Source of the DNA: Chloranthus sessilifolius
Taxonomy: Eukaryota; Streptophyta; Magnoliopsida; Chloranthales; Chloranthaceae
Assembly: GCA_021018995.1 (NCBI GenBank)
Contig: CM037597.1
Location: 34,846,936-34,910,935, forward strand
DNA: 64,000 nt
Reading direction: 5' to 3'
The stretch's first letter is position 1. Each line of letters opens with the position of its first letter. A model generated the notes under the pieces. The model saw nothing but the letters and a program-made list of their open reading frames with translations, searched no databases and was not told where the DNA came from. Shown one piece after another: positions 1,850 through 57,533 of the stretch. A program made the translations under genes and the position numbers.

Positions 1850-2215
1850 GAAAGCCTTCGAATATGAAACCCCTACTTCGAAAGGGTTTAAATATACTCA
1901 GAGTTAATTTCGCAAAGTTCTTTATAAGTTTTCGAAAAGTTCCAAAATAGACCTTTAGACAACTGTGAATGGCATCAGTACCATTCGAAAAGTTAAGAGC
2001 TTCAGAAACATCTTTTCGAAAAGAAATTAGCTTCAGAACTATCTTTTCGAAAAGAAAATAGCTTCAGAACCAACTATTCGAAAAGCAAATCTTTGCTTTC
2101 GAGCAGTTCGTTACATATCCAGAGTCTTTTCGAAAAGTAAATTGAACTTTGCGAAACGAGAATTATTACTTTGCGACTTAACTTGGAGCATATTTAAACC
2201 ATGCGAAAAGAGACA
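1850..2215. repeat. Iterated TTCGAAAAG motif array, pol to extra-gene spacer of A
   Basis: About ten copies of a short palindromic motif, best form CTTTTCGAAAAG, are spread roughly every 30 bases (for example near 1930, 1984, 2014, 2044, 2077 and 2128), with decayed TTTGCGAAA forms toward 2150-2205. The spacer carries no reading frame of note. The same motif family recurs in the A-type LTRs (about 9150-9300 and 60905-61170), so it belongs to this element family. Confidence 0.8.
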
Positions 2216-2292
2216 AATCATGAATAAAAACAGAAACAAAGAAACTAAGCAAAAACTATGAAATAAAAAACATAATGTACAGTTATCCACCA

Positions 2293-3460
2293 TCAAATTT
2301 TTGGAGGTTCGTGATGACAGATGGGCAGCACAGGCTCCTGGGTATTTTCAATGCATGGTTTGAGCCTCTGACCATTTACTTTCAGGATTCTTCCATTACT
2401 TGGATCTGAGTCATGAATGATGATATGGCCCTTCCCATCTGGATCTCAGCTTTTCTGGGAAAAACTTGAGTTTTGAGTTAAATAACCATACCGTAGAGCC
2501 AGCTGTGAACTCTTTTCTCAATAAATTTTTATCATGGAAAGTTTTGACTTTCTCTTTGTACAATCTTGAATTTGTGTACGCATCCATTCTCAGCTCCTCC
2601 AACTCAGCAAGTTGCAGTTTCCTGTCATTACCAGTAGTAGTTAGATCCACGTTCAATGTTTTAATGGCCCAAAAATCTTTATATTCTAACTCTACTGGTA
2701 AATGGCATGCTTTTCCATAGACCAACGTAAATGGGGACATACCAATTGGGGTTTTATAAGCTGTCCTATATGCCCATAATGCATCATTCAGCTTAAAGGA
2801 CCAATCCTTTCTGTCCTTCTTCACAGTCTTTTCCAAAATATGTTTGATTTCTCTATTGGAAATCTCCACTTGTCCACTGGTTTGTGGATGATATGGAGTG
2901 GCTACTCTATGAGTCACAGAGTATTTTTTCAATAAAGTTTCAAAATGTTTATTACAAAAATGGCTTCCCCCATCACTTATAATGGCTCTGGGAAAACCAA
3001 ACACGGAAAAATGTGATCCTTAAGAAATTTAAGAACCACTTTGTGATCATTTGTTTTAGTGGCTGTGGCTTCAATCCATTTGGATACATAATCCACAGCT
3101 ACTAAAATGAAATTATTCCCATTGGAAGGAGGAAAAGGACCCATGAAGTCTATCCCCCAAACATCAAACAACTCAACTCCAAAATAGGCTGTAAAGGCAT
3201 TGAGTTTCTCTTGGAAATGCTGCCCAATTTTTACTGATTTGGCAAGACTTACAATCTAGAGCATCTTTGAAAAGTGTAGGCCAATAAAATCCGCACTGCA
3301 AAACCTTTGCAGCAGTTTTGTTTCCACTAAAATGACCTCCACAAGCCTGTTCATGGCACATAGAAAGTATTCTATGAAATTCTTGGTCAGGGACACATTT
3401 TCTTATTATTTGGTCTGCACAACTCTTGAACAGATGAGGATCTTCCCAGATGAAATGTTT
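2293..3460 (-). pseudogene. Element A integrase
   Basis: This is the end of the pol polyprotein; it would insert the cDNA copy into chromosomes. The HHCC zinc-binding region lies near 3300-3450 (ACGGHF, then CKSCQ). The catalytic core shows GIDFMGPF (first Asp, about 3140), IISDGGSHF (second Asp, about 2970) and [11 protein letters not shown] (Glu, about 2860), so the DDE triad is visible. The C-terminal region has the [14 protein letters not shown] and RWEGPY segments typical of Athila integrases. Frames change near 3173, near 2990 and again near 2411; homology with element B then runs to a stop at 2293. No chromodomain is apparent. Confidence 0.82.
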
Positions 3461-5247
3461 AACCTTTGCGAAGAAAAGATCTTTATCCATTTTATTCCAA
3501 TGTTGAGGAATTCTTCCAGTAGCCAAAAAGTTGACTATGTTTGCAAACCAAGGAGTGTGTATACTAATGGCAAAAAGTTGCTCATCAGGGAAAGATTCAT
3601 TGATAGGCAGCCTATCAATATCAGTTAAAATTCTAGACAGGTGATCAGCCACCACATTCTCCACCCCCTTTTTATCTTTGATCTGTAAATCAAATTCCTG
3701 TAATAGGAGAATCCACCTGATTAATCTTGGTTTGGTGTCCTTCTTAGACAGAAGGTATTTCAAAGCAGAGTGGTCAGTGAACACCACTATTTGTGAACCC
3801 AAGACATATGACCTGAATTTTTCTAAAGCAAAAATAATTGTCGGCTCTCCTTCTCGGTTGTTGTGTAATTGAGTTGTGCATCAATCATTGATCTCCGGCA
3901 TAAGCTATGACATGAGGCGTTTTTTCTTTTCTGTCCCAAGGACTGACTCCCAAAGCATAATCGATGCATCACACATCGATTCAAAAGGTAGAATAATAAC
4001 TGAGACTGCAATATTGGAGCTGAAATCAAACAGTTTTTTAGGAATTCAAAAGCCTTCATGCATTCATTATTGAAAACAAAAGGGACATCTTGACACAGCA
4101 AATGACAAAGAGGTTTGGTTATTTTACTGAAGTCCTTGATGAACCTTCAGAAATCCGATGTCCCGAAAACTTGATTTGTTTAATAGCTTTTGGGAGGTGG
4201 TAAATGTGCAATTAAATCAATTTTGCTCATCCACCTCAATGCCCCTGTGGGAAACAACATGGCCAAGGACAATGCCTTGGGTGACCATGAAATGGCTCTT
4301 TTCCCAGCTCAGAACTAGATTGGTTTCTTCACATCTCTGTAATACCAATTTGAGATGATGTAAACACTGGGAAAAACTGTCTCCATAGATTGAAAAATCA
4401 TCCATAAAAATCTCCATAAATTGGTCAATCATATCAGAAAAAATGGAATACATGCATCTTTGAAAGGTAGCAGGAGCATTACAAAGACCAAAAGGCATTC
4501 TCCTATAGGCAAAAGTGCCAAAAGGGCAAGTGAATGTGGTCTTTTCCTGATCTTGTGGGTACACAGGAATCTGATTGTACCCAGAGTAACCATCAAGAAA
4601 ACAGTAATAAGCTTTTCCTGCTAGCTTATCTAAAATCTGATCAATGAATGGGAGGGGGAAATGGTCTTTTCTGGTCATTGCATTTAATTTTCTGTAATCA
4701 ATACAAACCCTCCATCCAGTTGTTTGTCTAGTTGACATAAGCTCACCAGAATCTGAGGTTACAACAGTGATCCCAGATTTCTTAGGTACCACCTGTGTAG
4801 GTGCCACCCAAGCTGAATCTGAAATGGGGTAAATGATGCATCCAACAACTTAACAACCTCTTTCATGACCACTTCTTGCATATGAGGGTTCAGCCTCCTT
4901 TGCATTTCCCTAGAAGGCTTTGCATCTTCTTCCAAATGGATTTTGTGCATGCAAATAGCTGGACTGATTCCTCCCAAATCAGCAATAGTCCAGCCAATTG
5001 CCCTTCTATGTTCTTTCAAAACTATCAACATCTCTTCTTCTTGCTCCTTTGTGAGGGAGGAAGAAATAATTGCAAGCAATGATTTATGATTTCCTAAAAA
5101 CACATATTTCAAATTTTTACTTAATTCTAAATCGAAATTTGAGAAAAGAAGGTAACAAAGGTACCTTAGCTGTTTGTGGAAGGGGGAGAGTAGCAGGTTT
5201 CCAAGAAGAGAAACTTGCTGATTGATTATGAGTTCCTTGCACAACAT
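3461..5247 (-). pseudogene. Element A reverse transcriptase and RNase H
   Basis: This segment would copy the element RNA into DNA in the cytoplasmic particle. The RT core (4217-4807) shows WRVCIDYRKLN, FLDGYSGYNQ, MPFGLCNAPATFQRCM and the catalytic FMDDFSIYG with both aspartates kept. The RNase H region (about 3620-4101) shows [25 protein letters not shown] and NVVADHLSR. The upstream linker (4759-5247) includes the conserved REMQRRLNPHMQEVV. A frameshift near 4800 separates linker and RT core, and others fall near 4150 and 3820, so the gene is dead although the RT box is intact. Confidence 0.85.
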
Positions 5248-7851: not shown

Positions 7852-7869
7852 TCCCCGGCAACGGCGCCA
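7852..7869 (-). other. Primer binding site of element A, tRNA-Asp
   Basis: On the minus strand these 18 bases read TGGCGCCGTTGCCGGGGA. That is an exact complement of the 3' end of plant tRNA-Asp(GUC), the usual primer for Athila and Tat elements. It begins six bases inside the LTR edge at 7876, the expected position for starting minus-strand cDNA. Confidence 0.92.
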
Positions 7870-8388
7870 AAAACTTGTTGTTGCTTCTTAGTGTGCTTGA
7901 TTTATGTGTGTTTTGAAAACAGGTTTGCAACTACTAAATTATACTAAAAAAATAAAGAAATATCAGCACAGGTAGAAGTGAATTAGCCTGCAAGATCAGG
8001 GCCAATTGTAGCAAGTTTTAAATGTAAGTGAGTGAAAGATCGTCCACAGAGAATTTGTCTAAAATGCAAGATAAACCTCCAGATCTGAGCTACCAGATCT
8101 GGCCTCTTATCCTATCTAGAAAGCACATAAGATGGGAGGTTGAATTTGTCACATTAACTAAATGATAAAAGTAAAAATTAAACTAAGTGATCCAGATCCG
8201 AGTTGGGGAAACGTTTGTGGTAAACTTATATAAAAAATGGAGAAGTAATATCTAACTTTGATTTGGTCCTTGAAAACTAATGAGAACGACTCTGACTCAA
8301 GCGAGAGATGATCCAATCTTCATCTGGCTACAAGCACAGATGTAAGAGAAATAAATCTAATTTAAGGATTAGGTTTAAGCTTATGGCT

Positions 8389-8420
8389 ATGGTCTGTCCA
8401 CTTTAATGGCCACAAACCAT
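8389..8420 (-). other. Conserved 32-nt leader hairpin, A copy
   Basis: On the minus strand, left-arm core ATGGTTTGT pairs with right-arm core ACAGACCAT around a TTAAAG-containing loop. It lies about 440 bases downstream of the TATA box, so in the transcribed leader. Elements B and C carry the same hairpin with paired substitutions. Confidence 0.65.
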
Positions 8421-8854
8421 CCAATAGTCTTTAATCCAAAGCCTTAGTTTAGAACAAGAAGCATCACTACAAATGCCGTGAGAGATTAGGTTACCAACAC
8501 TAATTCTCACAGGATTAATGAATCAAGGGAAGTTGCATGAAAAACAGTAAATCTAAAGGAGTCTAATGCAATAAGGAGATAAGAGGGAACCCTTAACATG
8601 AGTCCAATTGAGAATATAGGATTTACAGCAACCTTTTCAAATCCACCATTACAATTACAGAGCACAACTTAAACAGCTCTTAGATTTGTAGTCTTGAATA
8701 CAACTCTCTTTTGAATTACAGAAATGTCTCACAGCTCCCAATTTCAAGTCAAAGTGAAGCTATTACAGGGATTTCAGACAGACTATCTGGTTTGGAAATG
8801 GGGGAATAGGAATGAAACTCAAAATCTGGATGCCCCAATTGGGAAAATGGTTCG

Positions 8855-8865
8855 TCTATTTATAG
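8855..8865 (-). promoter_or_regulatory. TATA box of the A LTR
   Basis: On the minus strand this reads CTATAAATAGA, a strong plant TATA box. The same box is present in the solo LTR at 60568-60578. It is the probable core promoter of element A, transcribing toward gag. Confidence 0.75.
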
Positions 8866-8897
8866 TTTTCCCCAAGTCCAGCTCAGATGTGTATCAA

Positions 8898-8998
8898 CCA
8901 ATCAGAGGTGCTCAGATCTGTATTGACCAATGGTGGTCGAGCACGAGGATCCAGATCTGTTCTGGCCAATCAGAATTCCTCGATCTGGTTCAGCCAAT
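8898..8998. promoter_or_regulatory. Cluster of four CCAAT boxes upstream of the A TATA box
   Basis: CCAAT occurs at 8898, 8927, 8966 and 8994 on the plus strand, which is ATTGG in the direction of transcription. The boxes start about 35 bases upstream of the TATA box and are spaced about 28-39 bases apart. The solo LTR keeps the same set near 60610-60715. CCAAT is read by NF-Y in either orientation; a role here is inferred from position and repetition. Confidence 0.5.
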
Positions 8999-9585
8999 CA
9001 GGTAAAAAAGGCATCAATTTTGTTATGCAATCTGTTAGAGTTTCTAGAAGTTCCCGCCAAGTTATTTCATCTCTAGGTGCTCACATGGGGTGGAATATGC
9101 CTTCGCAAGGTGTTGTAACTCCTGAAGCTCTTTTCGTAAGGTTCTGGTTCTGTTCGAATTGAGTTTTCTTCTTTTCAAAAAGGTAAATCATCTCTTCGAA
9201 GAGTTCAAATGCTCTTCGAAAGCTAAGCCTGGAGTTTTTGTTCTTTTGAGTTTGAGTTCTTCTTGAGCGATTCAGTTCTTCTTGAAAAGTACTCTGTAGT
9301 GCATTTTTCTGTTTGAATTGCTCCATACTTATTTTCTGGTTTGAGACCACGTCTTTGCCTCTTCAATTCGGACCTTTAAACAGCTAGTGAGGTTGTTTCT
9401 TCTTCTTCTTCCTTTGGATTGACATGGAATGTCATCTTTTTGGCACTTTTGAGCTACTTTCAAGGTTAAGCCTGCCTTTATTGTTAGCTGTAAAACAAAC
9501 ACTTAAAACACTTATTTAGTTCTCTCAAGAGGTCTATTAAGGCCCAGATTAAGGGGTGAAAAATGGTATTTTCTAGTTCTCAACA

Positions 9586-10820
9586 CCTAGCTGCTTACCA
9601 AAAGGATTAGCCAACCAATGTTGGGCTAAGAGAGAAGAAAAATAAGAAAAAAAGATTATCAAACCCTAACCCTAGCCTATTGGAACTCTCAGCCGACAGA
9701 GGATGAAGGAAAGATGAAAATACTAAGCTCTAAGTACATCCTATTTACTCTATCCATAAGGCCTTGGCTCAAAAGAGAGTAACCCTAATTTTTCTAGCAT
9801 ATGTGGCACTATTACAACCCTTGAATGCCTTGAGATGTGCACCTCGAAATCCACACCTCGGGAAGTGTGCCCTTGCCTTAGGAAATTCCCAAAAGGTCCT
9901 TGAGTTAGGATTGAGAAGTGGAGAGCTCGAGCTTCGCGGGACTAGCATCTGCATTAATTCACTGGCGCAGTTGTAGAGCCTTCGTGGAGGAGCATTTGGC
10001 TTAGGAGGATTGCTCAATTGCCCAGTAGACTCTCAATGGATCACGCAGTTGGTTTGTGTTGCAATGTGGTCGCTGTGGTGATTTGAAACACCTAGATTTC
10101 TCGCGCAGTAGAGCTTCAGAGGTTCTCTCTCATTGGATACTCGCATAGGTAGGCTCCTGCGCTCGTGTAGTAACTGGTTAGGCTTCAGAGTGCACGAGAG
10201 CTGCTTGAGGAATATTCTGGGCATCTCTCTCTTCCAGGGCTTCGCGAGAACTCCGCGAGGTGATAAATTGTTCTTTATGCATATGGACTCGCTATGTTTA
10301 GCGCGCGACTGCTTTAAGGCTCGATCTCCGTGAGAGCTTCGCGAGCACAAATTCTAAGGGTTTTAAGACGCGAGATCTTCACGAGGTCTCTACTATTCTC
10401 TTCTTGACTGCGCGTCCCATCTGCATGAGGGCAGCTTTCACTGCATGCTTAGCTTCGCGAGGGAGCTCCTCAACTCTGCGAGATGATTCTTTTGATCCTC
10501 TGATGCCTTGCACTTGCTATTATTGCAGCTTCCTCCATTCTTAGCTAACTTCTTTCATCTGCTAGACTTTTTAATCAATGATGACCAGCAAATTGGTCAC
10601 CATGGTGAGCACTACCAAGGTGTTCCATTTGGCTTTGGCTCAGCTGTCATCTTTGCATATTTTCTTTCTCTTGTTTTGACCAAAAAGCAGGGATTTTGTA
10701 TTTAGCTACACAGTTTATTACTAACTACAAAATACACTTAACAAATGATTATTAGTGAGCTTCAAGGTCCAGCAAAGGCTAGGTTAAGAGGTGAAAAGTG
10801 GTACTTTTCAGTGAATAACA
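9586..10820 (-). repeat. 3' LTR of element B, interrupted by element A
   Basis: It is nearly identical to 21490-22724 over its whole visible length (for example the segment with CTTCGCGGGACTAGC near 9930 and 21835). It ends in AATAACA at 10820. Homology with the full LTR begins about 9590, directly beside element A's terminus, so the rest lies outside the window. The region 10090-10480 is dense in CTTCGCGAG-like motifs. Confidence 0.87.
10090..10480. repeat. Iterated TTCGCGAG motif array in the B LTR
   Basis: Roughly a dozen copies or near copies of CTTCGCGAG, CTCCGCGAGG, CTGCGCGAG and GCGCGCG sit about 30 bases apart. This makes a CpG-dense island in otherwise AT-rich DNA. The array is repeated in the 5' LTR (about 22000-22400) and, as shorter related motifs, in the B spacer at 13460-13690. 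Confidence 0.72.
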
Positions 10821-13123: not shown

Positions 13124-14173
13124 TGGTTATGGGTAGGGACAGACTGTTGAGGTTAAAGGAGAATGAATGTGAAGAAGGCAAATTACCCTTGTATTTAAAG
13201 TGCTTGGACTGCAGAATATGAATCAGCATATTAAATTTCGCCTCCTTCCAACCTTCATTTCTATAAAGAACTTAAGGTTAGTTGGCAATAAATTGTGATT
13301 ATTATTGGAAATGGTAAATCGCATAATTTATTATGGGAAATGAAATCGCACAATAAATGTTGGTATATTTTTAGCACTGGGAGTTAAAGCAGAGGGACAG
13401 AAAATGAAGAAATTGAAGAAATCCATCAAGCGTAAAAGGGCCAATCCCGTGCTTCACACAGCTTTCCATAGGGACTCGCGGAGTAGATGTCGCGCGCAGT
13501 ACAAATGTAAATTTGCGAGAAGGATAATCGTGCAGAAGAACATAGCTCTGCAAAAACAGAATTAGATGCTTTGTGTGCTTTGCAAAGTTACTTCGCAGTG
13601 TTGACATTGGGCCTAAGCGCGCGAAGCAGTTTCTCATTTCTCATACGGCTTAACTGGTTATCCCTGCGAAGAACAACCACTTGGAGTTTTAGAGACCTCG
13701 CGCAATAAAATATTTTGAATTCTTCTTTTTGCGCCCTCAAGACTCCATGAGAAAACCTTGAAATGGCTCATGATTATGAAAATTAGGCCATTTAACTCCT
13801 CGAGAAAGCAACACTTAACACATTTCTTCAGTTTGAGCCCTGGCCTATGCATGTACAATGTCATGCACCCATTCAGTGGTCATTAGCACCAACCCTTTTA
13901 CATGTACCCCATTCTCTAATGACAATGTCCTCCCCCCTACCAGCACATGCATATCAAAATTTTAGAATGATAAAAGCTTTTCATGGAAGCAAATTCTTGG
14001 CAATTACAGTGTCAGTACTTCAATCACCTAACAGCAATAGGCATGCATTTCCCATGGTAGATATGAAAACAAACAAGCAAGTCTCCCTTAAAAAAAAAAA
14101 TGACATGTTCCTAGACAAACTAAAACACACACAAGTTTCAACGGATATGGTACATATATTATAAAGTTGTGGA
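13124..14173. repeat. Spacer of element B with TTCGCGAG-type motifs
   Basis: About 1 kb between pol and the short extra frame. The part 13460-13690 contains CTCGCGGAG, TCGCGCGCAG, TTTGCGAGAAGG, CTTCGCAGTG, GCGCGCGAAGC, CTGCGAAGAAC and CCTCGCGCAA at short intervals, the same motif class as the B LTR. The remaining parts (13124-13380 and 13840-14173) hold no gene; short frames there look accidental. Confidence 0.65.
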
Positions 14174-20032: not shown

Positions 20033-20563
20033 AAAACTTGTTGCTCCGGATGTGCTGATTTATTATGTGGTGTTGGAAGAGAATTAAAATCAAAGTGAAA
20101 CAGAGCATAAAGATATGATGAAAACAACAATCCTAAAACATCCTAGACCTACAAGATACAGGGCCTATTGTAGCAAGTTTTGATAAGTAAGAGTTTGTCC
20201 CATAGAGAAATTGATCTAGAACTCAAAATGGGCTATAATAGTAGGCCTCTAGATCTGGTTACATATCTAACAATCCTAAAGAAAGGAAGTTGGGTGTCAC
20301 GGCTACACTAGATTAACCCTAACAAAAGAGAAATAAAGTGCAGCCCTATCCTAAAGAAAGGGTTAAGAAGAAGATGGTGTTGGTGTGTGCCAAAATAAAA
20401 TACACAAATAATGGGAAGTAAGGAGGTTAAGCTAGAGTTAATGCAGTAATGTAACTCAGATTTAGACTGTCTCTGTAGTGGTCCTTGCTGAGATGTTATT
20501 ACTAACCTCAATAAGGTAAAAATATCCAACTTAACCCATACCATTTTGGGTGCTCTTAAGGCT

Positions 20564-20595
20564 ATAGGTTGTCCACTCAAATGGCCACAGCCTAT
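20564..20595 (-). other. Conserved 32-nt leader hairpin, B copy
   Basis: On the minus strand left-arm core ATAGGCTGTGG faces right-arm core ACAACCTAT around a loop containing TTTGAG. Relative to element A both arms changed (ATGGT/ACCAT to ATAGG/CCTAT), so pairing is kept. Confidence 0.62.
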
Positions 20596-21643
20596 CCTAT
20601 AGAGTTTGTCAAATCCCATTGATCAAGCCAGAAGTTGCTAATGTAATCCAGATGAGTAGACTGATCATTTCTCCAACCACTGGACCAGATCAGGCCATGA
20701 ATATTATTGCAGACACTATGTAATGCCAGTGCTACAAGCTCCCCAGATCTACACACAGATCTAGCTGACATCCATAGGTATTCTAACCCATAAAGTCCTA
20801 AGTTCTTTGCCAAGGCCAATGGCTCACTGTGCCCATAAAAAGGACCAGCAACAGGTTGAATAAAGATTTAGATTTAGCTGGTCATTGCTATAAAAGGCCT
20901 GTAATATCTCAGCCTCAAGCTGTAATTACTACAGAGAAATCAGATCTAACATCTGATATCGATCAAGTAAAATAGAGGGGAGCCAGTTCCTGCATAAACC
21001 TCCTCACAAGGCTCTAAAAGGTCATATACAGAAGAGAAAAATTCTTCTCAGACATGTGGCTAGACACCACCTTAGGGTTATACTCTACCCACTCAAATGG
21101 TCACAGGATATCCGATTGGTCTATCCATGCCACAAAGATCTGAGAAATAACATGTAAACTGTTGTTGCCACTATGGAGTCCTAAGGCTACGAGCTCTCTA
21201 GATCTGACTACAAATCCGGCTTGCTATCCATGGGGCTATTAAACCAAGGGAAATTAGATGAAAAATAATAGATCTTCTAGAAACTGAATGGGCTAGTCCC
21301 AAAGCATGGATCCTATAGACATCTAAGGAAACCATAAGATCTATAGATTTAATTAGTCATTAAAACAGCAATCCATTGATAAAAGTAAAACTCACAATGA
21401 ACTGTCTCAAGGCTGCAACTTGTACACAACTGCTCATCCAAAAGATCCCAATGTATACAAGGCCTATTACAAAACTGAAATAAAACTAACGTAACTGCTT
21501 ATAAAAAGGATTAGCCAGCCAATGCTGGGCTAAGAGAGAAGAAAAATAAGAAAAAGAGATGATCAAATCCTAACCCTAGCCTGCTGAAACTCTCAACTGA
21601 CAAAGGATGAAGGAAAGATGAAAATACTAAGCTCTAAGTATAG

Positions 21644-21652
21644 CTTATATAC
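21644..21652 (-). promoter_or_regulatory. TATA box of the B 5' LTR
   Basis: On the minus strand this reads GTATATAAG, a plausible plant TATA box. The matching place in the 3' LTR (about 9740) has diverged. The hairpins lie about 0.6 and 1.1 kb downstream, so inside the transcript. Confidence 0.5.
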
Positions 21653-22724
21653 TCTGTCTATAAGGCCTTGGCTCAAAAGAGAGTAACCCTAATTTTTCCA
21701 ATAGACGATGCACTATTACAACCCTTGAATGCCTTGAGATGTGCACCTCGAAATCCACACCTCGAGAAGTGTGCCCTAGCCTTAGGAAATTCCCAAAAGG
21801 TCCTTGAGTTAGGATTAAGAAGTGGAGAGCTCGAGCTTCGCGGGACTAGCATCTGCATTAATTCACTGGTGCAATTGTAGAGCCTTCATGGAGGAGCATT
21901 TGGCTTAGGAGGATTGTTCAATTGCCCAGTAGACTCTCAATGGATCACGCAGTTGCTTTGTGTTGCAATGTGGTCGCTGCGGTGATTTGAAACACCTAGA
22001 TTTCTCCCGCAGTAGAGCTTCAGAGGTTCTCTCTCATTGGATACTCGCGTAGGTAGGCTCCTGCGCTCGTGTAGTAACTGGTTAGGCTTCAGAGTGCATG
22101 AGAGCTGCTTGAGGAATATTCTGGGCATCTCTCTCTTCCAGGGCTTCGCGAGAACTCCGCGAGGTGACAAATTGTTCTTCATGCATATGGACTCGCTATG
22201 TTCTGCGTGCGGCTGCTTTAAGGCTCGATCTCCGTGAGAGCTTCGCGAGCACAAATTATGAGGGTTTTAAGACATGAGATCTTCATGATGTCTCTACTGC
22301 TCTCTTCTTGACTGCGAGTCCCATCTGTGCGAGGGCAGCTTTCACTGCATCCTTAGCTCCGCGAGGGAGCTCCTCAATTCTGCGAGATGATTCTTTTGAT
22401 CCTCTGATGCCTTGCACTTGCTGCTGTTGCAGCTTCCTCCATTCTTAGCTAACTTCTTTCATCTGCTAGATTTTTTGGTCAATGATGAGCAACAAATGAG
22501 TCACCATGGTGAGCACTATCAAGGTGTTCCGTTAGGCCTTGGCTCAGCTATCATCTTTGCATGTTTTCTTTCTCTTCTTTGGAACAAGAAGTAGGGATTT
22601 TGTATTTAGCTGCATAGTTTATTACTAACTACAAAACACACTTAACAAATGATTATTAATGACCTTCAAGGTCCAGCAAAGGCTAGGTTAAGAGGTGAAA
22701 AGTCATACTTTTCAGTGAATAACA

Positions 22725-23428
22725 ACGGCGTAAAGAGCCGCCACACGATTCTTGGTTCTCTTGCTTTTTTTTCCACGGGGAAGTAAATTGTTGGATATAA
22801 CGATATCCCAAAACAAAATATCTCTTGGCAAAGCTGATCGGGTGTTGACATCCCTGATCCTTGTCTACCACCACACATGTTGATCATGGCATCTTGGCTT
22901 AAAACGACAATCAGGTCAATATGATGGTCGATAGGTTAGACTACAAAGAAATTAAACGGCCTAGCAATATCAGCGGCGTGCACTTGGTAGGTCCAATTAT
23001 CAATTTGAATGTTGATGTATGCAAAGCCTGATGGAGAGCGCAATGCGGCCACCCATTTCATGTTTTGGTAAAACAGTCGTATGATACACGGCGAGACGTC
23101 AATCGGCGGAGGTGCAAGTAGCATTTCGAGATGCATGGCTTAGATGTATTTGATTGATCGCGTGGCCTCCGAAACTTGGTGGAACTTTGATAGATCAAAG
23201 AAATTTTTCGTTTGGATCTCACGGTCTGCATAGTCATCATTCAGCATTCTCATCGAGTTATTGGCAGGACGTGGTGGACGGTAGATTGCGCAGCCCGCTT
23301 CAACCATTTCGAAGATACGAGGAAGGAAGAAAATTAGTACGAGGAGGTGGTATTTGAGTGACAGAGAAATGAAGAGAAAAGGGACCACGGGTGTCCCTTA
23401 AATCTAATAATTATCGTAGTTGGAGACG
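22725..23428 (-). pseudogene. Extra 3' gene of element D, putative plant transposon protein (fragment)
   Basis: The likely start is MVEAGCAIYRPPRP at 23307. The frame continues through a TAA stop (CAA to TAA type) near 23138, then SPCIIRLFYQNM, INIQIDNWTYQVHAADIARPF (22936-23136), which aligns with the WYQKL and DDWQLTIDYRDIRMALGVPY block of element C. The remaining part toward 22725 is frame-shifted. Element B is inserted at its 22725 end and element C at 23428. Its promoter-side continuation, a CAATCGATTGA-rich spacer, resumes at 36071. Confidence 0.7.
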
Positions 23429-23699
23429 TGTTAAGTGGTAAAAAATGCCACTTTTCACCCTATAATCTGACCATTGATAGACCTGTGAGCACACTAATAA
23501 GCTCTTGGCAAGTGCATTTTGTAGACAGCAATAAAAGAAGGTACTAATGCAGAAAACCACTCAAGAATCCTCAAAAAGGAGCTATCTCTCAGCAAAGGAC
23601 AAACCTAGCAATAGCACACCAGAGGGTAGCACATCACTAGACCCTTGGAGCGCGTGGCTACAACAGGGCAAGGTGAAGGAAGTGAAAACAGGCTAAGAA

Positions 23700-24190
23700 C
23701 GTCCTATCGATTGGTCACCTTAAGACATCGATAGGAGATGAAAGCAAAGAAAGGAAGAATTCGTGCAGTTGAAGAGGTCTTCGATAGGATCTGAAGGCAG
23801 AAGAAGGATGAATTCGTGTGGATTAAGGAGTTCGATAGGATCTCAAAACCTATCGAGCAACTGAAAGGAAAGAAGAAACCATCCTATCGAAGACCTGCCT
23901 GAACAGTGAAAGGAACCTATCGAATGGTTTCTTGAACCTATCGAGATGAGAATGCTAGAATAGAACCTTTCGAAGGGTGATTGAGCCTTTCAAAAAGACT
24001 GAAAGCAAACCTATCGAAATAGTTTTCCAACCTATTGAATACTCCAAACCAAGAACTGAGAAAGCTGGAACTCCAAGTGAAGATTCATCCTATCGAAACC
24101 TATCGAATGGATCTGAGAACCTAGCGAAAGGACCAAAATGCATGATTCCAACCTGTTGAAAGCTTCCTAAACCTATCGAAATCGTGTGCA
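23700..24190. repeat. Iterated CCTATCGA motif array in the C LTR
   Basis: By eye there are about twelve exact CCTATCGA or reverse TCGATAGG octamers in under 500 bases, plus near copies such as CCTTTCGA, CCTAGCGA and CCTGTTGA. Spacing is commonly 20-45 bases and both orientations occur. The 3' LTR carries the same array at 34260-34745. Confidence 0.85.
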
Positions 24191-24390
24191 GAACTTCTCA
24201 GAAATTCAACTAAACACATATTGTACTTCAGTGACCCACTGCACGTAACCCGAGGCACTTGTTGATTGACACGACGGTTCCAGAAGATGCCCTAGAAAGC
24301 CCTAACCGACCCACATGCTTTAACAGAACACTAACAAACTCTGACGGCCTTCTAGGAGGAATTTTTGGCGGGAAAAATAGAGGAGAAAGC

Positions 24391-24399
24391 TATATATAG
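24391..24399 (+). promoter_or_regulatory. TATA box of the C LTR
   Basis: TATATATAG follows AGAAAGC, 960 bases into the LTR and just after the motif array. The 3' LTR keeps it at about 34947-34956. Transcription would run toward gag, putting both hairpins in the leader. Confidence 0.68.
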
Positions 24400-24885
24400 A
24401 GATCCCCAATTGTCATTGGGGGGGATCCAGATCTGAGCCAAATTCTGGAGATTAGCGCCTGCAGAGCAATTCCATTTCCCTCCTTTAGCCCAACCATGGT
24501 TGGCTAAGTCCCTTAGAGTAGCGAGGAGCGAAGTTAGATCTGTAATTGGGTGAGGTTAAGAGTGCTATTGTAGGTTCCTAACTGCACTGACTACAGATCT
24601 GAGAGTATTTCCATTGTAAAGTAACCTTGTTTAAAATGATAATATTGTTTTTAATGCTTTAATTAGATTTAAATTTCCTTTGGTTCCATTTGGTGATCGA
24701 TCGGATTTGTGTAGAGGAGTTGTAGATCAGCTCACCCACTTAACTGATAGACCTCTTCGATACCATCTGATCTCCCTGGATCTGATGCTCCTGTGATTCC
24801 TTGAGTCTGTGACCTGGGAATTGCAGCATCTGTAGTGGTTTTAATTATTCTAATTGAGGCTCTGGCTTTGTAGGAGATCCCTAGG

Positions 24886-24917
24886 ATGGTCTGTGACTAT
24901 TAAAGTGGACAGATCAT
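24886..24917 (+). other. Conserved 32-nt leader hairpin, C copy 1
   Basis: ATGGTCTGT and ACAGATCAT form a nine-pair stem with one G-U pair; the loop contains TATTAAAG. The 3' LTR copy is at 35437-35468. Confidence 0.65.
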
Positions 24918-24994
24918 AACCTTAAGATAAATCTAAGCTCAGGCCTCAATTGGATTCATCTGTTGCAATCCATGGATTTGATAAAGTCTATAGG

Positions 24995-25026
24995 ATGGTT
25001 TGTGACCATTAAAGTGGATAGATCAT
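24995..25026 (+). other. Conserved 32-nt leader hairpin, C copy 2
   Basis: A second copy 109 bases downstream of the first: ATGGTTTGT against ATAGATCAT, all nine positions pairable if G-U is allowed. The 3' LTR copy is at 35546-35577, with the same 109-base spacing. Confidence 0.62.
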
Positions 25027-25525
25027 AGCCTTAAGATCAGGTGGATCCTGTGATTTGGAGTGGAATTTATACCCTGCAGCTGTGCTTATAGCCAGCGAGG
25101 GAATTGTGTGCTCTGAACCTCTATAGCATGATTAATTAAATCTGATTTCAGTGAAAACCAACCTCCAAGCTACTCTTCTCCATTTTCTATATTTTTACTC
25201 TTTTCCCCTGTAAGATCTAAGCTCCTAAACTCGATCCAATTTAGCTTATATTTAATTGTAGCTTAGTATAAGTGACAATCCATTTCAAAACTCTCCCCTG
25301 TCTTTTAGCTAAATTAGTAATAGTTAAGGTGCCAGATCTGACACAGATCTGGAGATTTGTCATATTTTTAAACAACCTCCCTATGGACATTCCCTTACTC
25401 ACCATTCTTTTAAAGCTTGCTACAACAGATCATGAATACTTGCAGGTCTGTATGAGTGTGTCTGCCTAGTTTTATTGATGATTTTAGACCTCATATGAGG
25501 GAAGGCAAACACGCCAATAAGTTTT

Positions 25526-28369: not shown

Positions 28370-29297
28370 CCCCCACAGTCAGTATGTATCATATGTACAA
28401 TACTCTGTTTTTGTTTATAGGTGTTTACTTAGTTGTTATTTGATTCTTTGTATTTCTTTGTAATAGTAAAAAGAAAATAATAAAACTACCATGCTCAATA
28501 CTAGACCGTCATTCTCAGCTGTCCTAAGGTAATGGGAGCTGTTCATAAGAGAATCTAATCATGGGGCACCACATCAACTGAGCCTGCTGAGAACTGAGAC
28601 TGTGAATGCTCAGAAATACAGCTTTATTTGATTTTAGAAGTCTTCGATAGGTCACGCTCACCTTTTGATAGGTCACTTGGTGATTTCAGCAGGATGATAG
28701 ATGGTTTCAATAAGTACTGCACCTCTCGATATGTAAAACTAACTTTTCGATAGGAAAAACGGAGATTTCGATAGGTTCTAGATACCAATCGGAAACCTAT
28801 CGAAATGAAGATTCAGCTATCGTTTAAACTAATCGAAAGGATAGTTCCACCTATCGAGATCCTATCGAATCACCCGCTTTTAAAGTTGTGTCTGCTATGC
28901 TTTCGACAGGACACATGAACCTATCGAAACCATCCAGTTCATCCTATCGGAATCGTATTTCACCTTTTATATACCTGTCGATAGGACATTTGTGCCTCAT
29001 TACATATCTTCTGCAAAACCCTAGTTTTCTTTCTCTCGCAATCGCCTCCCTCTTCCTTCACTAATTCCTCATAGAACCTCCAGCTGTTCAGTCTGCCTTT
29101 TTGTCAGAACATTCAGCTTGCACATAGGAGTATTTTGCCCCTAATTTTGGAATTTTTGAAGCTGGGCAGTGCGATTTCAGTTAAACCCTAGGTATTTTGA
29201 GGTCAGTTGCCTTCCCCCCATCAATCTGTTGATCCTCTAATTTTTAAACCTAAAACTCCGCTTCAAGTTGGTGAATGCTTAATTTCTTAAGAGTAAA
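28370..29297. repeat. Element C spacer with CCTATCGA motif array
   Basis: No gene. The part 28640-28990 holds about eight exact CCTATCGA/TCGATAGG octamers plus near copies (CTATCGTTT, TCGACAGG, CCTATCGGA), in both orientations, at 20-50 base spacing. It is the same motif as in this element's LTRs. The rest (28990-29297) is the untranslated lead-in to the extra gene. Confidence 0.82.
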
Positions 29298-33970: not shown

Positions 33971-33987
33971 GCTTAGGTTTGGGAGTG
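33971..33987 (+). other. Polypurine tract of element C, LTR-proximal
   Basis: GCTTAGGTTTGGGAGTG directly precedes the 3' LTR (TATTAAGTGG, mutated from TG). It is preceded by GACTAGCAAA as in element B. Confidence 0.75.
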
Positions 33988-36070
33988 TATTAAGTGGTGA
34001 AAAATGCCACTTTTCACCCTATAACCTGACCATTGATAGACCTGTGAGCACACTAATAAGCTCTTGGCAATTACATTTTGTAGACAGCAATAAAAGAAGG
34101 TACTAATACAGAAAACCACTTAAGAATGCTTAAAAAGGAGCTATCTCTCAGCACAGGACAAACCTAGTAATATCACACCAGAGGGTAGCACATCACTGGA
34201 CCCTTGGAGCGCGTGGCTACAGCAGGGCAAGGCGAAGGAAGTGAAAACAGGCTGAGAACGTCCTATCGATTGGTCACCTGAAGACGTCAATAGGAGCTGA
34301 AAGCAAAGAAAGGAAGAATTCATGCAGTTGAAGAGGTCTTCGATAGGATCTGAACGCAGAAGAAGGACGAATTCATGTGGATTAAGGAGTTTGATAGGAT
34401 CTCAAAACCTATCGAGCAACTGAAAGGAAAGAAGAAACCATCTTATCGAAGACCTGCCTGAAGAGTGAAAGGAACCTATCGAATGGTTTCTTGAACCTAT
34501 CGAGATGAGAATGCTAGAACAGAACCTGTCGAAGGGTTATTGAGCCTTTCGATAAGACTGAAAGCAAACCTATCGAAATGGTTTTCCAACCTGTCGAATA
34601 CTCCAAACCAAGGACTGAGAAGGCTGGAACTCCAAGCGAAGATTCATCCTATCGAAACCTATCGAACAAAACTGAGAACCTAGCGAAAGGACCAAAATGC
34701 TCGATTCCAGCCTGTCGAAAGCTTCCTGAACCTATCGAAATCATGTGCAGAACTTCTCAGAAATTCAGTTGAACACACGTTGTACTTCAGTGACCCGCTG
34801 CACGCAACCCGAGGCACTTGGTGATCGACACAACGGTTCCAGAAGATGCCCTAGAAAGCCCTAACCAACCCACGTGTTTTAACATAACTCTAACAAACTC
34901 TGACGACCTTCTAGAAGGAATTTTTGGCAGGAAAAACAGAGGAAGCTATATATAAAGATCCCCAATTGCCATTGGGGGGGATCGAGATCTGAGCCAAATT
35001 TTGGAGATTAGCGCCTGCAGAGCAATTCTATTTCCCTCCTTTAGCCCAACCATGGTTGGCTAAGTTCCTTGGAGTAGCGAGGAGCGAAGTTAGATCTATA
35101 TTTGGGTGAGGTTAAGAGTGCTATTGTAGGTTCCTAGCTGCACAGACTACAGATCTGAGAGTATTTCCATTGTAAAGTGACCTTGTTTGCAATGATAATG
35201 CTATTTTTAATGCTTTAATTAGATTTAAATTTCCTTTGGTTCCATTTGGTGATCGATCGGATTTGTGTAGAGGAGTTGTAGATCAGCTCACCCACTTAAC
35301 TGATAGACCTCTTCGATACCATCTGATCTCCTCAAGATCGATGCTCTGTGATTCCTTGAGTGTGATGCAGGAATTACAGATCGTAGTGGTTTTAATTATT
35401 CTAATTTAGGCTCTGGCTTTGTAGGAGATCCCTAGGATGGTCTGTGACCATTAAAGTGGACAGATCATAACCTTAAGATAAATCTAAGCTCAGGCCTCAA
35501 TTGGATTCATCTGTTGCAATCCATGGATTTGATCAAGTCTATAGGATGGTCTGTGACCATTAAAGTGGATAGATCATAGCCTTAAGACCAGGTGGATCCT
35601 GTGATCTGGAGTGGAATTTATACCCTGCAGCTGTGCTTATAGCCAGCGAGGGAATTGTGTGCTCTGAACCTCTGTAGCATGATTAATTGAATCTGATTTC
35701 AGTGAAAACCAACCTCCAAGCTACTCTTCTCCATTTTCTGCATTTTTACTCTTTTCCCCTGCAAGATCTAAGCTCCTAAACTCGATCCAATTTAGCTTAT
35801 GTTTAATTGTAGCTTAGTTTAAGTAACAATCCATTCCAAAACTCTCCCCTGTCTTTTAGCTAAATTAGTAATAGTTAGGATGCCAGATCTGACACAGATA
35901 TGAAGATTTGTCATATTTCTAAACAACCTCCCTGTGGACATTACCTTACTCACCATTCTTTTAAAGATTGCTACAACAGATCCTGAATACTTGCAGGCCT
36001 GTATGAGTGTGTCTGCCTAGTTTTATTGATGATTTTAGACCTCATTTGAGGGAAGGCAAACACCCCAACA
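33988..36070 (+). repeat. 3' LTR of element C
   Basis: 2083 bp, collinear with 23429-25519, starting TATTAAGTGG and ending CCCCAACA. It contains the motif array (34260-34745), TATA (about 34947) and both hairpins (35437 and 35546). Followed by AGATG, the probable target duplication of AGACG at 23424. Confidence 0.92.
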
Positions 36071-36075
36071 AGATG

Positions 36076-36850
36076 GTTTAGATTTGAATTTCAATTGATT
36101 GAATCTAACAATTCAATCGATTGAGATTAAGGAATGATATTTTTGTACAGGGCTCATAAATAACACGCCATTTTTGTAATCAACCGTCAGGTGCATACTC
36201 AAATCAATCAATTGAATTGTCAGAGTCAATCGATTGGCATTAGTATAGCAACGCATCGTATGTGCAATTTCAAAGACATGATGCTTAACACTTTTGGGAC
36301 ACACGGGATGGTCAGACTGTTCATAATGTCAATCGATTGAAATTTTAAATCGTTCGATTGACTTCAATGATGCGCCGATTTGAAAGTCGGTTGAAAAGAC
36401 GCAGTTAAGTCGCTTGGGAGATAGAACCGTCAGATACATTGTAATGTCAATCGATTGAAATAGGTTAATCAATCGATTGACATTAATACATGCAAACATG
36501 AATGACAACTGAAAAGACATGAGGAATGATTCTTGGCTATCGGGTATTGTGATTCTCAATCGATTGACATGCAATTGATTGATAGAGAGGTGCGCATGTG
36601 CATTTCCATCAATCTATTAAAAGGATTGTCACATCAATAGATTGGGGAGGAATTAACCATTTTGCAGCACGAGACACATTCACAGCATTCGATCGATTGA
36701 GTTGATTTCCAAATCAATCGATCGAGGTGCAAGTTCCTAGTCTAGTTATGGAAATTACTTTTCATGGTCAATCCATTGATTAAGGAAAATCAATCGATTG
36801 ACCTAGACACACTTATCCTATGACACAAAAGAAAGAACAAAATTAATACA
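36076..36850. repeat. Iterated CAATCGATTGA motif array, element D spacer
   Basis: About eight exact or one-off CAATCGATTGA palindromes and as many weaker forms (CAATTGATTGA, CGATCGATTGA, CAATCTATT) are spread over 750 bases at about 30-60 base spacing. There is no gene here. The array ends about 120 bases before the end of pol. Confidence 0.85.
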
Positions 36851-46592: not shown

Positions 46593-46750
46593 CAAAACCT
46601 GAGGATGGTGGGGCCTTTATAGTCCGAGACAGCACTGTTTTCCTTCTCTTTTGGCTCAGGTTTGGTATTTTTTGCTACTGTTTTTCCTTTTGCTTTCCCA
46701 AGGGTGGGTCCATCATCCTACATTGAATTTATATCTTTGGAAAAATATTT

Positions 46751-51535: not shown

Positions 51536-51859
51536 CCTCGGCATTAACTGCCCCGTCGAAGTGCATTACCCAGAATTCTTTTGTCTCTACTGTATTGTCC
51601 TCTGTCATGAACAGGATGTCTTCATCTGGGAATTCGGTTCTTAAAGGCTCATAATTGGGTAAAGGATTCTCGACAAGATGATCAGTGAGTGCTTGCCCCT
51701 TAATTGATTTTTGAGTGATGTATGTGATATCGAATTAGGACAGTAAGAGCTACAGCATGCAGTCTGCCTAGTAAGAGCTAGCTTTTCGAACAGGTATTTC
51801 AATGGATCCATTCGGGCTAAAAGTAGAGTGGCTTGGGATAAAAAATAATGGCGGAGCCT

Positions 51860-53316: not shown

Positions 53317-53543
53317 AATTTTAAAAGATAATATTTTTGGATTTTATATTTTTTCTATGTTTTTAGGATTTTTATTTTCTTCGAAAATGGGCTCTTGGCA
53401 AAGCGAGTCCTTATATATACACGGTGTTGCCTGTCAAGGGCTTATCTCACTTTTTATAGATTGTTTTTTTTTTGGAAACGGGTGTCATATTTCAGGCCAC
53501 TTGCCACTTCCAGAGTTTGAGACACAGATGCCCAATTACGTAC

Positions 53544-55609: not shown

Positions 55610-56224
55610 AGTTCAGGGTCAATTGATTGATTTGTGAAAAATCGATCAATTGATACAAAACTGAGAACGGTACTCAGACAATTCACCTTATCATTCAATT
55701 AATTGAAGATGGAAAATCAATCGATTGAGATAGTAAGCATTGTTTGGGCAGAACAGAAAACACCGACTGGAATGGTAATAGTTTTTGCTTCTTCAATCTA
55801 TTGAGACAGACTGATCGATTGAGGAAAATCCGAAAGTAAAATTGGTTGACTCAATTCTCTGCCTGGTCAATCGATTGAATTCAGACAATCAATCGTTTGA
55901 AATGACTCAGAGAGCAGAGTTAACCAATTTGGTATAATTCAGAATCAATCGATTGATTTAGAAACATCGATCGGTTGACTGACAATAGTGAATGATTTTT
56001 CGATTTCGAGCAGAGAAGAATTTTCAATCACAATAGAAATTTATTTGGTTTTTTTTTTCGATTCACTTTGATCGATTAATTTTTACAAATCAATTGATTG
56101 AGGTGAAACAATAAGTGTAACACAAATCTCTACTTTTCAGTCAATCGACTGAATCTGAAAATCAATCGGTTGACTAGCAAAACAGAGAACAAAAATCTCT
56201 AAAAATTAATAAAATTTCGATGCC
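55610..56224. repeat. Iterated CAATCGATTGA motif array next to D gag
   Basis: Many CAATCGATTGA, TCAATTGATTGA, ATCGATCAATTG and related palindromes about 30-60 bases apart between the truncated gag and the primer site. This is the same motif as in 36076-36850 and in the D LTR. No gene. Confidence 0.82.
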
Positions 56225-56242
56225 TCCCCGGCACCGGCACCA
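56225..56242 (-). other. Primer binding site of element D, tRNA-Asp type
   Basis: On the minus strand it matches the tRNA-Asp complement of element A at 16 of 18 bases. It begins six bases from the LTR edge at 56249. Confidence 0.82.
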
Positions 56243-56248
56243 AAAACT

Positions 56249-57533
56249 TGATCAGTTTTTAAAGTGTACCCTTGCAAGTGCACAAGATCTATCTTGGTAA
56301 GGCAAGAATATGAGTGTCGAATCCATAGGGAAGTATGAAATTTAATTAATTTTTAAAAGAAAGAAAAACTTAAGAAAGTACCAAAGGTGAGATTTGTTAT
56401 TACGATTTACCACTACAGAATGCAATAATAATTATAATTAAAATTAAGCTATGCAAGGATGAACTCTGACAAATAAAATTATGATGATGAGATGATCAAG
56501 GACTCCTCTAAGATGTGTAACTTTTTCTACTAACAATCCAAATAATTCAATGTCAAATTATTTTACCATCATTTTACTACAAGCAAACAAATCGATAAGA
56601 CCGCGATTATTGACTCGGCATACAATATCCTAACACTCTGACGCATTCAATCACGACATGAATCATGCGAAAGGCATAATGTATCTCAAATACGAAATCA
56701 CAACAGTAAGATCCAATCATACGACATCCTACATTAGTCTATAAGATTGATCTAGGTAGAATAACTCTCTTATTATCGCTAATAACCAAGATCGACGCTC
56801 ATTTAGTTACTCATCTAGAGCTCGCTTCATCCTTGAACGAGGGGTTTAGCCATCTCTGATCCACACGCGATGCACAGAATCGAAGCCATTTAAATGAACA
56901 TTCTTTTTATTATCAACTGTTCGATCTTTTGAAAAAGATCGGAACCTTACAATGTCTTAATTCCTAATTACAAACTACAACTAAAAACACTAAAGAAAAC
57001 TTGGAAAAACCCTCAGAAAATCTGCCAAGAGGAAGTCCTCAAACCCTAAACAAAGCATTCTTTTTATAGGGTACGGATAGGAAAACTTCCATAAAAAGGC
57101 TCAATCGATTGATTTTCAAATTTCAATCGATTGACTTCAAAATTGAATTTTGGCGAATTTCTTTGAATTTGAATTCAATTGATTGAATTATAAATCCCAA
57201 TCAATTGAATTAGTTCAAATTCAAGAGGGAAAAGGTTGTCATCCAGATCAATCGATTGATTCATGAGATTCAATCGATTGATGATGACATGCAATATCTT
57301 CATTCTATTGGTTGTGGCTGAACCAATCAATTCTTTTCACGAATTTCAGTGCTTTTATTGGCTCCCTGGTCTAATGTTCTCATGTAACCCTTAATTATGC
57401 TCAATTACGCTCTTTTCAGATCCAACGGTCAAGAATACCTAAAACCACTGAAACTCCATAATAACTATCAGATAGCTTTCATTGGATGGCTAAGTGTCGG
57501 TATTTGGGTATGAAATATAGTGATATTTTGGCA
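56249..57533 (-). repeat. 5' LTR of element D
   Basis: 1285 bp from TG at 56249 to CA at 57533. In transcription sense it starts TGCCAAAATATCAC, comparable to the AAAATGCCACTTTTCACC start of the other LTRs. It contains a TATA box at 57061, CAATCGATTGA motifs (57100-57290) and a CTTCCCTATGGATTCGACAC segment near the end (about 56315), the counterpart of similar segments in A, B and C. Confidence 0.78.
57061..57069 (-). promoter_or_regulatory. TATA box of the D LTR
   Basis: On the minus strand this reads CTATAAAAAG. It lies between the motif array and the transcribed leader, as in element C. Confidence 0.55.

What the first reader, a model, noticed from the sequence alone, without database searches (positions are those of the whole stretch)
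1850..57290. Each retroelement family carries its own iterated palindromic motif, in LTR and spacer
Seen: arrays of a short self-complementary, CpG-containing motif occur in the LTR and again in a noncoding spacer beside the extra gene, and the motif differs by family. A: TTCGAAAAG (1850-2215, about 9150-9300, 60905-61170). B: TTCGCGAG (10090-10480, 22000-22400, 13460-13690). C: CCTATCGA (23700-24190, 34260-34745, 28640-28990). D: CAATCGATTGA (36076-36850, 55610-56224, 57100-57290). E: TGGCGCA/TGCGCCA hairpins. Known: VANC proteins of Arabidopsis VANDAL transposons bind family-specific short motifs in noncoding regions and block silencing. Inference: these arrays may be cognate sites for an element-encoded protein, perhaps the extra-gene product, or methylation-sensitive promoter sites, diverging as each family escapes cross-regulation.
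Basis: partly seen in the sequence, partly recalled or inferred. Interest (0 to 1): 0.86.

Follow-up and report, generated by a model that had tools for sequence, protein, structure and literature searches.

The report
Paired palindrome arrays in plant retroelements
Plant jumping elements of several families each carry their own short, repeated, mostly palindromic DNA word in front of their main promoter and again in front of an unexplained extra gene, in most families set in pairs two turns of the DNA helix apart, which makes it testable whether that gene is a self-switch rather than an envelope.

Summary
The arrays are real for families A-D (B weakly); E is not (5 sites, 2.5 expected). A, C and D words exceed all 200 shuffles in their own LTR and spacer, and are near expectation in gag-pol, extra gene and other families; B's word does so in its LTR only. 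In copies sampled from the host genome the motif recurs in the spacer: C 20 of 20, A 20 of 20, D 16 of 20. The extra gene is sense, PF20167-like (Transposase_32), with a basic N-terminus in A and C. Of eight other PF20167 loci, six have an upstream array: CGGACGTCCG-cored in four, some proven Ty1/copia; CTCGCGAG in a Ty3/gypsy one; GTCGATTAATCGAC in one. The two without have no spacer left. New: sites pair 20-23 bp apart, two helical turns, in A, C, D and two further motif groups, not in B. Closest precedent: repeated motifs of Ty1/copia Sireviruses, in LTR and before 'ENV' (PMC2829016). Best reading: operator arrays at two promoters, most likely bound by the element's own PF20167 protein. Binding is untested; a host factor remains possible.

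The parts
7876..9585 (-). Element A 5' LTR (A lies inside B's 3' LTR; TSD CCTAG)
   Evidence: Self-blast, TG..CA ends, PBS at 7852-7869; 3' LTR about 96% identical at about L129:5540-7367 and the rest of B's LTR beyond it
9130..9290 (.). A array in LTR (CTTTTCGAAAAG-type, no exact half-site left), upstream of TATAAAT at 8864
1878..2210 (.). A array in spacer, 11 centres with gaps of 21-22, 30-32 and 52-53 bp
1..1578 (-). A extra gene (broken; basic N-terminal part; PF20167-like piece at 630-1076)
59592..61435 (-). Solo LTR of family A, TSD GGTTC on both sides; array about 60933-61180, TATAAAT at 60577
20035..22724 (-). Element B 5' LTR (left end approximate); PBS at 20015; array about 21760-22390 (CTCGCGAAG/CTTCGCGAG), TATATAA at 21651
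9586..10820 (-). Element B 3' LTR part with array about 9857-10480
13470..13705 (.). B spacer array, weak in this copy
   Evidence: a gypsy element elsewhere with the same motif type has a stronger one (L195)
23429..25519 (+). Element C 5' LTR; array 23703-24179; TATATAT at 24391
33986..36070 (+). Element C 3' LTR; array 34262-34738
28644..28985 (.). C spacer array, 13 centres, five of 12 gaps exactly 21 bp, upstream of the extra gene ATG at 29298
29298..31561 (+). C extra gene (broken by a stop and a frameshift in this copy)
   Evidence: unbroken 553-aa relative in L135 with PF20167 E 2.4e-5
56247..57480 (-). Element D LTR (both ends approximate); array 57101-57281 as three 22-bp pairs, the middle pair with mismatches; TATAAAA at 57068
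55619..56173 (.). D array in the leader between PBS (56225) and gag, 12 dyads, five gaps of 21-23 bp
36091..36801 (.). D spacer array, 16 dyads: five gaps of 21-22 bp, two of 25, one of 15
22725..23307 (-). D extra gene start, across the C insertion (C TSD AGACG/AGATG, 4 of 5 bases)
   Evidence: profile of the A and C pieces finds 22939-23139 at E 2.3e-5 among all six-frame fragments of 30 aa or more

Best explanation
The arrays are double-stranded DNA operator sites. Each family has its own 8-16 bp, usually dyad-symmetric, CpG-containing site. In A, C, D and at least two further motif groups the sites are set in pairs two helical turns (20-23 bp) apart, as expected for a dimer-of-dimers. One array lies in the LTR upstream of the TATA box; a second lies upstream of the extra gene, where it would serve an internal promoter. 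The factor that binds them is most likely the element's own extra-gene product, a PF20167 (Transposase_32) type protein. It would drive or keep open both its own promoter and the genomic-RNA promoter, a self-activation loop like foamy-virus Tas or an anti-silencing loop like VANC. Shown: the arrays, their places, their family specificity, pairing, recurrence across sampled copies, and association with PF20167 genes in both Ty3/gypsy and Ty1/copia. Inferred: binding, the internal promoter, activation versus anti-silencing.
For: Own-family enrichment in LTR and spacer for A, C, D. Recurrence in spacers of other copies: C 20 of 20, with at least 4 exact sites on the 3' LTR side in 19 of 20 and none in the extra-gene stretch in 20 of 20; A at least 2 exact half-sites in 20 of 20, at least 3 in 18 of 20; D at least 8 half-sites in 16 of 20. 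A full dyad counts as two half-sites in A and D. Pairing: D in the window 13 of 31 adjacent gaps at 21-23 bp, random mean 2.7, maximum 9; in 18 of 20 sampled D spacers (two with under 5 sites left out) 82 of 182, random 12, maximum 24, 70 of them exactly 22, 23 more at 24-25, while the remaining gaps vary widely, mostly 38-135; C exactly 21 in 64 of 215 gaps over 20 related copies (no random control); 10.5 bp is the best period for A and C. Flanks of paired C and D sites are no more alike within than between pairs. Six of 8 PF20167 loci have arrays; the two without have no spacer; host elements include copia (L191; L194 via L199, RVT_2) and gypsy (L195 via L200). One TATAWAW lies within 300-400 bp downstream of each of 5 LTR arrays, 0.27 expected per 300 bp. 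Motif CpGs are retained in 235 of 299 cells against 137 of 237 elsewhere, over 21 C spacers. The extra gene shows no stretch of transmembrane-grade hydrophobicity (maximum Kyte-Doolittle 1.43) and is K/R-rich at its N-terminus in A and C, not in D.
Against: No strict TATA box in the A, B or C spacers (0 of 3) nor before D's gag. No DNA-binding assay; the fold model was poor (pLDDT 52.5). PF20167 scores of the A and C proteins are below Pfam's cut-off (20.4 and 24.8 against 45 bits). L151, whose extra-gene piece is closest to D (81%), has mainly a different word (TAATCGAA 13 times, TCAATCGA 5), while pieces at 64-70% share D's motif, so motif and gene do not change in step there; L153, L154 and L162 have few D sites (3, 3, 1). 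D also has an array before gag, not only before the extra gene. D's motif resembles that of tobacco Tnd-1, which has no ENV gene (PMC2829016). B shows no pairing, nor does L195. The window's own B copy has no recognisable extra gene. D's best overall period is 25, not 10.5. Copies of one family are not independent observations.
Confidence: 0.58

Rival explanations
1. Host transcription factors, different ones or paralogues for each family, bind the arrays; the extra gene is merely one of the two genes so regulated.
For: Tobacco Tnd-1 (Ty1/copia, no ENV) carries ACAATCGATTGT, nearly D's motif, and Sireviruses without ENV keep LTR motifs (PMC2829016 Table 3). U3 repeats bound by host factors are known for Tnt1 (recalled). 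L151 shows motif and extra gene out of step; D has an array before gag too.
Against: Five different motifs share one 20-23 bp pair geometry, and outside the LTRs and D's leader the arrays examined lie before PF20167-type genes, in both superfamilies (the window's B copy has lost its gene). But the sampling started from that gene, so elements without it were not surveyed.
Confidence: 0.27
2. The repeats act at RNA level (dimerisation, packaging or hairpins) or as small-RNA hotspots, as reported for palindromes of maize Sirevirus LTRs.
For: The arrays lie in U3, leader or internal sequence that would be part of genomic RNA, and D has one in the leader; maize Sirevirus palindromes are sRNA hotspots (PMC5311732 passages).
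Against: C's mostly asymmetric site occurs in both orientations (LTR1 12+/4-, spacer 7+/8-, a few sites counted on both strands), and 10.5-bp phasing in A and C is a property of B-form DNA recognition.
Confidence: 0.08
3. The arrays are passive products of slippage and tandem duplication.
For: A's spacer contains a 31-bp tandem repeat; within-pair flank identity in A is slightly raised (0.39 against 0.34).
Against: C and D flanks are unrelated within pairs (0.31 and 0.29 against 0.32 and 0.34), both orientations occur in C, the places are restricted, and D pairs stay at 22 bp while other gaps drift.
Confidence: 0.03

Closest known systems
Repeated motifs (RMs) of Ty1/copia Sireviruses (Bousios et al. 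2010, PMC2829016; passages, section 9 and part 1 of 2 of the discussion read)
   Same: Element-specific palindromes in high copy number, upstream of the LTR TATA box and clustered just before the extra (ENV) gene; the authors suggest an internal promoter for ENV.
   Different: That paper calls RMs a Sirevirus-specific feature, absent from classic Ty1/copia; here they are in Ty3/gypsy elements, without the CGG-CCG core. In the parts read, no pair spacing is described and no link to a PF20167 gene. The CGGACGTCCG-cored loci sampled here look like ordinary RMs.
VANC and its target motifs in Arabidopsis VANDAL DNA transposons (PMC5735166; abstract, part 1 of 2 of the results, sections 9-11 read)
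   Same: Related elements have different short motifs in non-coding parts and carry a fast-evolving extra gene.
   Different: DNA transposons; VANC has DUF1985 and DUF287, not found here; VANC targets grow as tandem repeats, whereas C and D pairs do not; binding and hypomethylation are shown there, not here.
3' additional ORF of sunflower Athila 14 (487 aa, PF20167 at 133-312, nuclear signal; PMC11728184, passages read)
   Same: Same place, sense and domain position (L135: 128-301).
   Different: No arrays are mentioned in the passages read; a nuclear signal is predicted there, here only K/R-rich stretches were counted.
Retand (Ty3/gypsy) TRP28 antisense ORF with family-specific tandem repeats (PMC11963269; passages and discussion read)
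   Same: Extra protein proposed to bind DNA and regulate; family-specific repeats after pol.
   Different: Antisense gene of another Pfam family; tandem repeats rather than dispersed short dyads; not said to recur in LTRs in the parts read.
Foamy virus Tas with LTR and internal promoter (PMC8670036, start of abstract in a search listing only; otherwise recalled)
   Same: Two promoters served by an element-encoded activator is the logic proposed here.
   Different: Unrelated animal virus; the activator is established there, only inferred here.

Membership tests
Athila lineage (Ty3/gypsy) | gag-PR-RT-RH-INT order of Ty3/gypsy | tested here: met
   A: gag, RVT_1, RNaseH and rve in gypsy order; B: gag, protease, RNaseH; D: RNaseH and rve, its gag ORFs had no Pfam hit; C by DNA similarity to A and B
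Athila lineage (Ty3/gypsy) | tRNA-Asp-type primer binding site | tested here: met
   Matches (up to 5 mismatches) at 25526, 7852, 20015 and 56225 to an 18-mer typed from recall; tRNA-Asp PBS of Calypso and Diaspora in PMC1142308 passages
Athila lineage (Ty3/gypsy) | sense extra ORF with PF20167 between pol and 3' LTR | tested here: met
   A piece and open relatives of C, bit scores below the Pfam cut-off; D by a profile of A and C
Athila lineage (Ty3/gypsy) | reverse transcriptase phylogeny | not tested
   no lineage reference set was at hand
Sirevirus repeated motifs | palindromic element-specific motif, many copies, upstream of LTR TATA and before the extra gene | tested here: met
   C is only half palindromic, B's spacer weak
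Sirevirus repeated motifs | host element is Ty1/copia | tested here: not met
   Window elements A-D are gypsy; the other loci L191 and L194/L199 are copia
Sirevirus repeated motifs | CGG-CCG core | tested here: not met
   A TTCGAA, B CGCG, C TATCGA, D ATCGAT; met by the CGGACGTCCG core in L192-L194 and L196
VANC / VANDAL | DUF1985 or DUF287 in the extra protein | tested here: not met
   Pfam scans up to E 10 of pieces and up to E 1 of two open copies show only PF20167
VANC / VANDAL | sequence-specific binding and loss of DNA methylation | not testable with these tools
   needs protein and bisulfite data
Foamy-virus-like two-promoter activator | core promoter behind the internal array | tested here: inconclusive
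   no strict TATAWAW in the A, B and C spacers (0 of 3; D's not scanned); TATA-like stretches seen by eye only

The most novel reading that the evidence does not exclude
PF20167 (Transposase_32) proteins, so far filed as env-like or unknown additional ORFs, are a family of fast-switching, sequence-specific DNA-binding regulators shared by Ty1/copia Sireviruses and Ty3/gypsy Athila-type elements. Each recognises its own family's dyads, set in pairs two helical turns apart, at the LTR and at its own internal promoter.
Probability: 0.5. Interest if true: 0.92.

Novelty: new variant of a known kind. Interest (0 to 1): 0.78.

Why it matters
What the extra, 'env-like' genes of plant LTR retrotransposons do is an open question (PMC7264820, part 1 of 3 read; PMC2829016). 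The sites before the gene, their family code and their helical pairing give a direct test: does the protein bind its own array? If so, a large number of retroelement copies in one genome carry self-regulatory switches that diverge by family, a retrotransposon counterpart of VANC, and a source of new specific DNA-binding proteins. It would also link the unexplained repeated motifs of Sireviruses to a gene.

Tried and rejected
Motif E as a family code: rejected by counts of TGGCGCA. Protein database search with the C extra gene: no hit at E 0.001 in two searches, although gag finds plants. Structure prediction of the extra-gene piece: too poor to use. Pairing in B: none. A missed test: comparing a gene tree with the motifs, since only 60 bases of coding DNA were fetched for the eight PF20167 loci. 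LTRs of the sampled A and D copies were not fetched.

The held-out logic (word from LTR, tested in spacer) holds for C and D; A's word came from the whole element, and B's LTR word failed in the spacer. CpG retention in LTR pairs: C and B together 27 of 35 against 26 of 59 (p 0.002), but A 4 of 11 against 6 of 17, no difference; with A included 31 of 46 against 32 of 76 (p 0.009).
Full report
WHAT WAS CHECKED. The window (plant DNA by its named gag relatives; bases 34,846,936-34,910,935 of contig C14 in a 2.17-Gb unnamed assembly) holds nested LTR retroelements. A (minus) sits in B's 3' LTR: A's other LTR and the rest of B's LTR lie left of the window, with TSD CCTAG. C (plus) has LTRs at 23429-25519 and 33986-36070 and lies inside D (minus), whose extra gene continues at 22725-23307 beyond C. 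A solo LTR of family A with TSD GGTTC lies at 59592-61435 (scripts used 59594). Another minus-strand gypsy element apparently occupies roughly 40-54 kb inside D.

ARE THE ARRAYS REAL? Yes for A, C, D and B's LTR. An unsupervised scan of 317 windows of 700 bp returns C, D, A's spacer, A's solo LTR and B's 3' LTR, besides tandem repeats and a few other clusters; it misses A's own LTR array and B's spacer. The cross-table of motif against region is nearly diagonal: A, C and D words exceed all 200 shuffles in their own LTR and spacer and lie near expectation in gag-pol, the extra gene and other families; B passes in its LTR only. Similarity between LTR and spacer is limited to short stretches of at most 51 bp, seen in A and D, so the spacer is not a copied LTR. 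E fails.

A NEW FEATURE: PAIRS TWO HELICAL TURNS APART. Centres of sites are not random. In D, 13 of 31 adjacent gaps are 21-23 bp (random mean 2.7, maximum 9 in 5000). In C, 10 pairs lie at 20-22 bp against 2.5 expected, all exactly 21; A has 13 against 6.5, counting its LTR and the related solo LTR. A's spacer and solo-LTR gaps are only 20-22, 30-32 and 52-53 bp; its own LTR has one gap of 66. The best period is 10.5 bp for A and C; for D it is 25, and only the pair spacing is tight. B has no signal. Bases around paired sites are not more alike within than between pairs in C and D, so tandem duplication does not explain the pairs; in A it may contribute. In 18 of 20 sampled D spacers (two with under 5 sites dropped; L151 scored with its own word), 82 of 182 adjacent gaps are 21-23 bp (70 exactly 22) against 12 expected; 23 more are 24-25, and the rest vary, mostly 38-135 bp. 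These copies are related, so the p-value is not that of independent events; the contrast between fixed and drifting gaps is the point.

OTHER COPIES. Using 67-99-residue pieces of the extra gene as probes in the same genome: C gave 30,655 first-look candidates (150 scored, 87-100% identity), A 31,898 (150 scored, 88-100%), D 2,959 (150 scored, 64-100%). First-look candidates are not confirmed matches. I fetched 20 of 150 for each. C: the motif or a shifted form is the best spacer 8-mer in 20 of 20, present on the 3' LTR side in 19 of 20 (none in L135), and absent from the extra-gene stretch in 20 of 20. A: at least 2 exact half-sites in the spacer in 20 of 20, at least 3 in 18 of 20; in L176 the best 8-mer is another word. 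D: at least 8 half-sites in 16 of 20; L153 and L154 have 3, L162 has 1, and L151 has mainly a different word. For A and D only spacers were fetched.

THE GENE. A and C extra genes are homologous (E 1.6e-18 between pieces), and a profile of both finds D's among all six-frame fragments of 30 aa or more of the window (E 2.3e-5; the next at 1.3), with nothing in B. Open copies exist; one of 553 aa hits PF20167 over residues 128-301 (E 2.4e-5, 24.8 bits, below the cut-off of 45), another of 525 aa at E 5.7e-4, the same layout as sunflower Athila 14 (PMC11728184 passages). The N-terminal part is K/R-rich in A and C but not in D, and no stretch is hydrophobic enough for a membrane helix by a simple scale.

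THE SAME GENE IN OTHER ELEMENTS. The Pfam model PF20167 gave 13,856 first-look candidates, 150 scored, all over the cut-off; I fetched upstream DNA for 8, picked for different match ends. Six have arrays: CGGACGTCCG-cored (CACGGACGTCCGTG in most) in four, CTCGCGAG (B's motif type) in one, GTCGATTAATCGAC in one. The two without have no spacer left: in L191 a reverse transcriptase fragment runs up to the extra ORF, and L198 has a gag-like zinc knuckle in one open frame with it, the latter by eye. L191 and L194/L199 are Ty1/copia by RVT_2; L196 ends in a copia-type RNase H tail by eye; L195/L200 is Ty3/gypsy by integrase (rve E 0.008, below cut-off, and sequence by eye); for L192, L193 and L197 the superfamily was not determined. 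Gaps of 20-23 bp are again in excess: 16 of 33 in L192-L194 and L196 (random 3.9, maximum 12) and 7 of 12 in L197 (random 1.2, maximum 6; two outlying sites left out), but 0 of 8 in L195. So what joins these elements, across two superfamilies, is the PF20167 gene, an array before it, and in most groups the pair geometry.

PROMOTER ANATOMY AND CpG. Each of five LTR arrays is followed by one TATAWAW within 300-400 bp (0.27 expected per 300 bp); the A, B and C spacers and D's leader have no strict one. Motif CpGs are kept more often than other CpGs: 235 of 299 against 137 of 237 cells over 21 C spacers (cells of related copies are not independent). This could reflect selection before insertion or less methylation after; A's LTR pair shows no such difference.

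MECHANISM AND RIVALS. The simplest account is an operator array for a dimer-of-dimers at two promoters. That the binder is the element's own PF20167 protein is inferred from association and shared geometry. A host factor is the main rival, supported by tobacco Tnd-1 (ACAATCGATTGT, no ENV), by L151 and by D's array before gag. RNA-level roles are made unlikely by both-strand use in C and helical phasing in A and C.

NOVELTY. Sirevirus repeated motifs (PMC2829016) already showed family-specific palindromes before the LTR TATA and before ENV, so the architecture is known in Ty1/copia. My ten full-text searches of open-access papers did not show a report of it in Ty3/gypsy elements, of the paired spacing, or of the link to PF20167; I judged most hits by listing only, most subscription papers are not held, and the 2016 maize Sirevirus palindrome paper could not be read.

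Noticed in passing
window 40000-54000: Minus-strand gypsy element, apparently inside D, with plus-strand (antisense) ORFs weakly matching DUF7745 (46971-47192, E 0.0025) and plant mobile domain (47220-47423, E 0.38) and tandem repeats at about 41557-42061 and 43086-43523; resembles Retand-type layout.
   Followed up: partly
window 7876-9585, 59592-61435 and 23429-25519: A second palindromic word, CAGATCTG, occurs 4 times in each of these A, A-solo and C LTRs (0.04-0.07 expected), shared by both families.
   Followed up: no
L151 24-381 (sense orientation): Closest D relative by extra gene (81%) carries a TAATCGAA/GATTAATC array further upstream, similar to L197; a possible motif switch.
   Followed up: no
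window 62601-63500: Cluster of ACCAAACC (5 copies in 700 bp) outside the described arrays.
   Followed up: no
P0043: A plant-type gag fragment is filed under Streptomyces plicatus, probably contamination.
   Followed up: no
window 12878-13120 (-): B copy has a short proline- and lysine-rich ORF after its spacer in place of a recognisable extra gene.
   Followed up: partly
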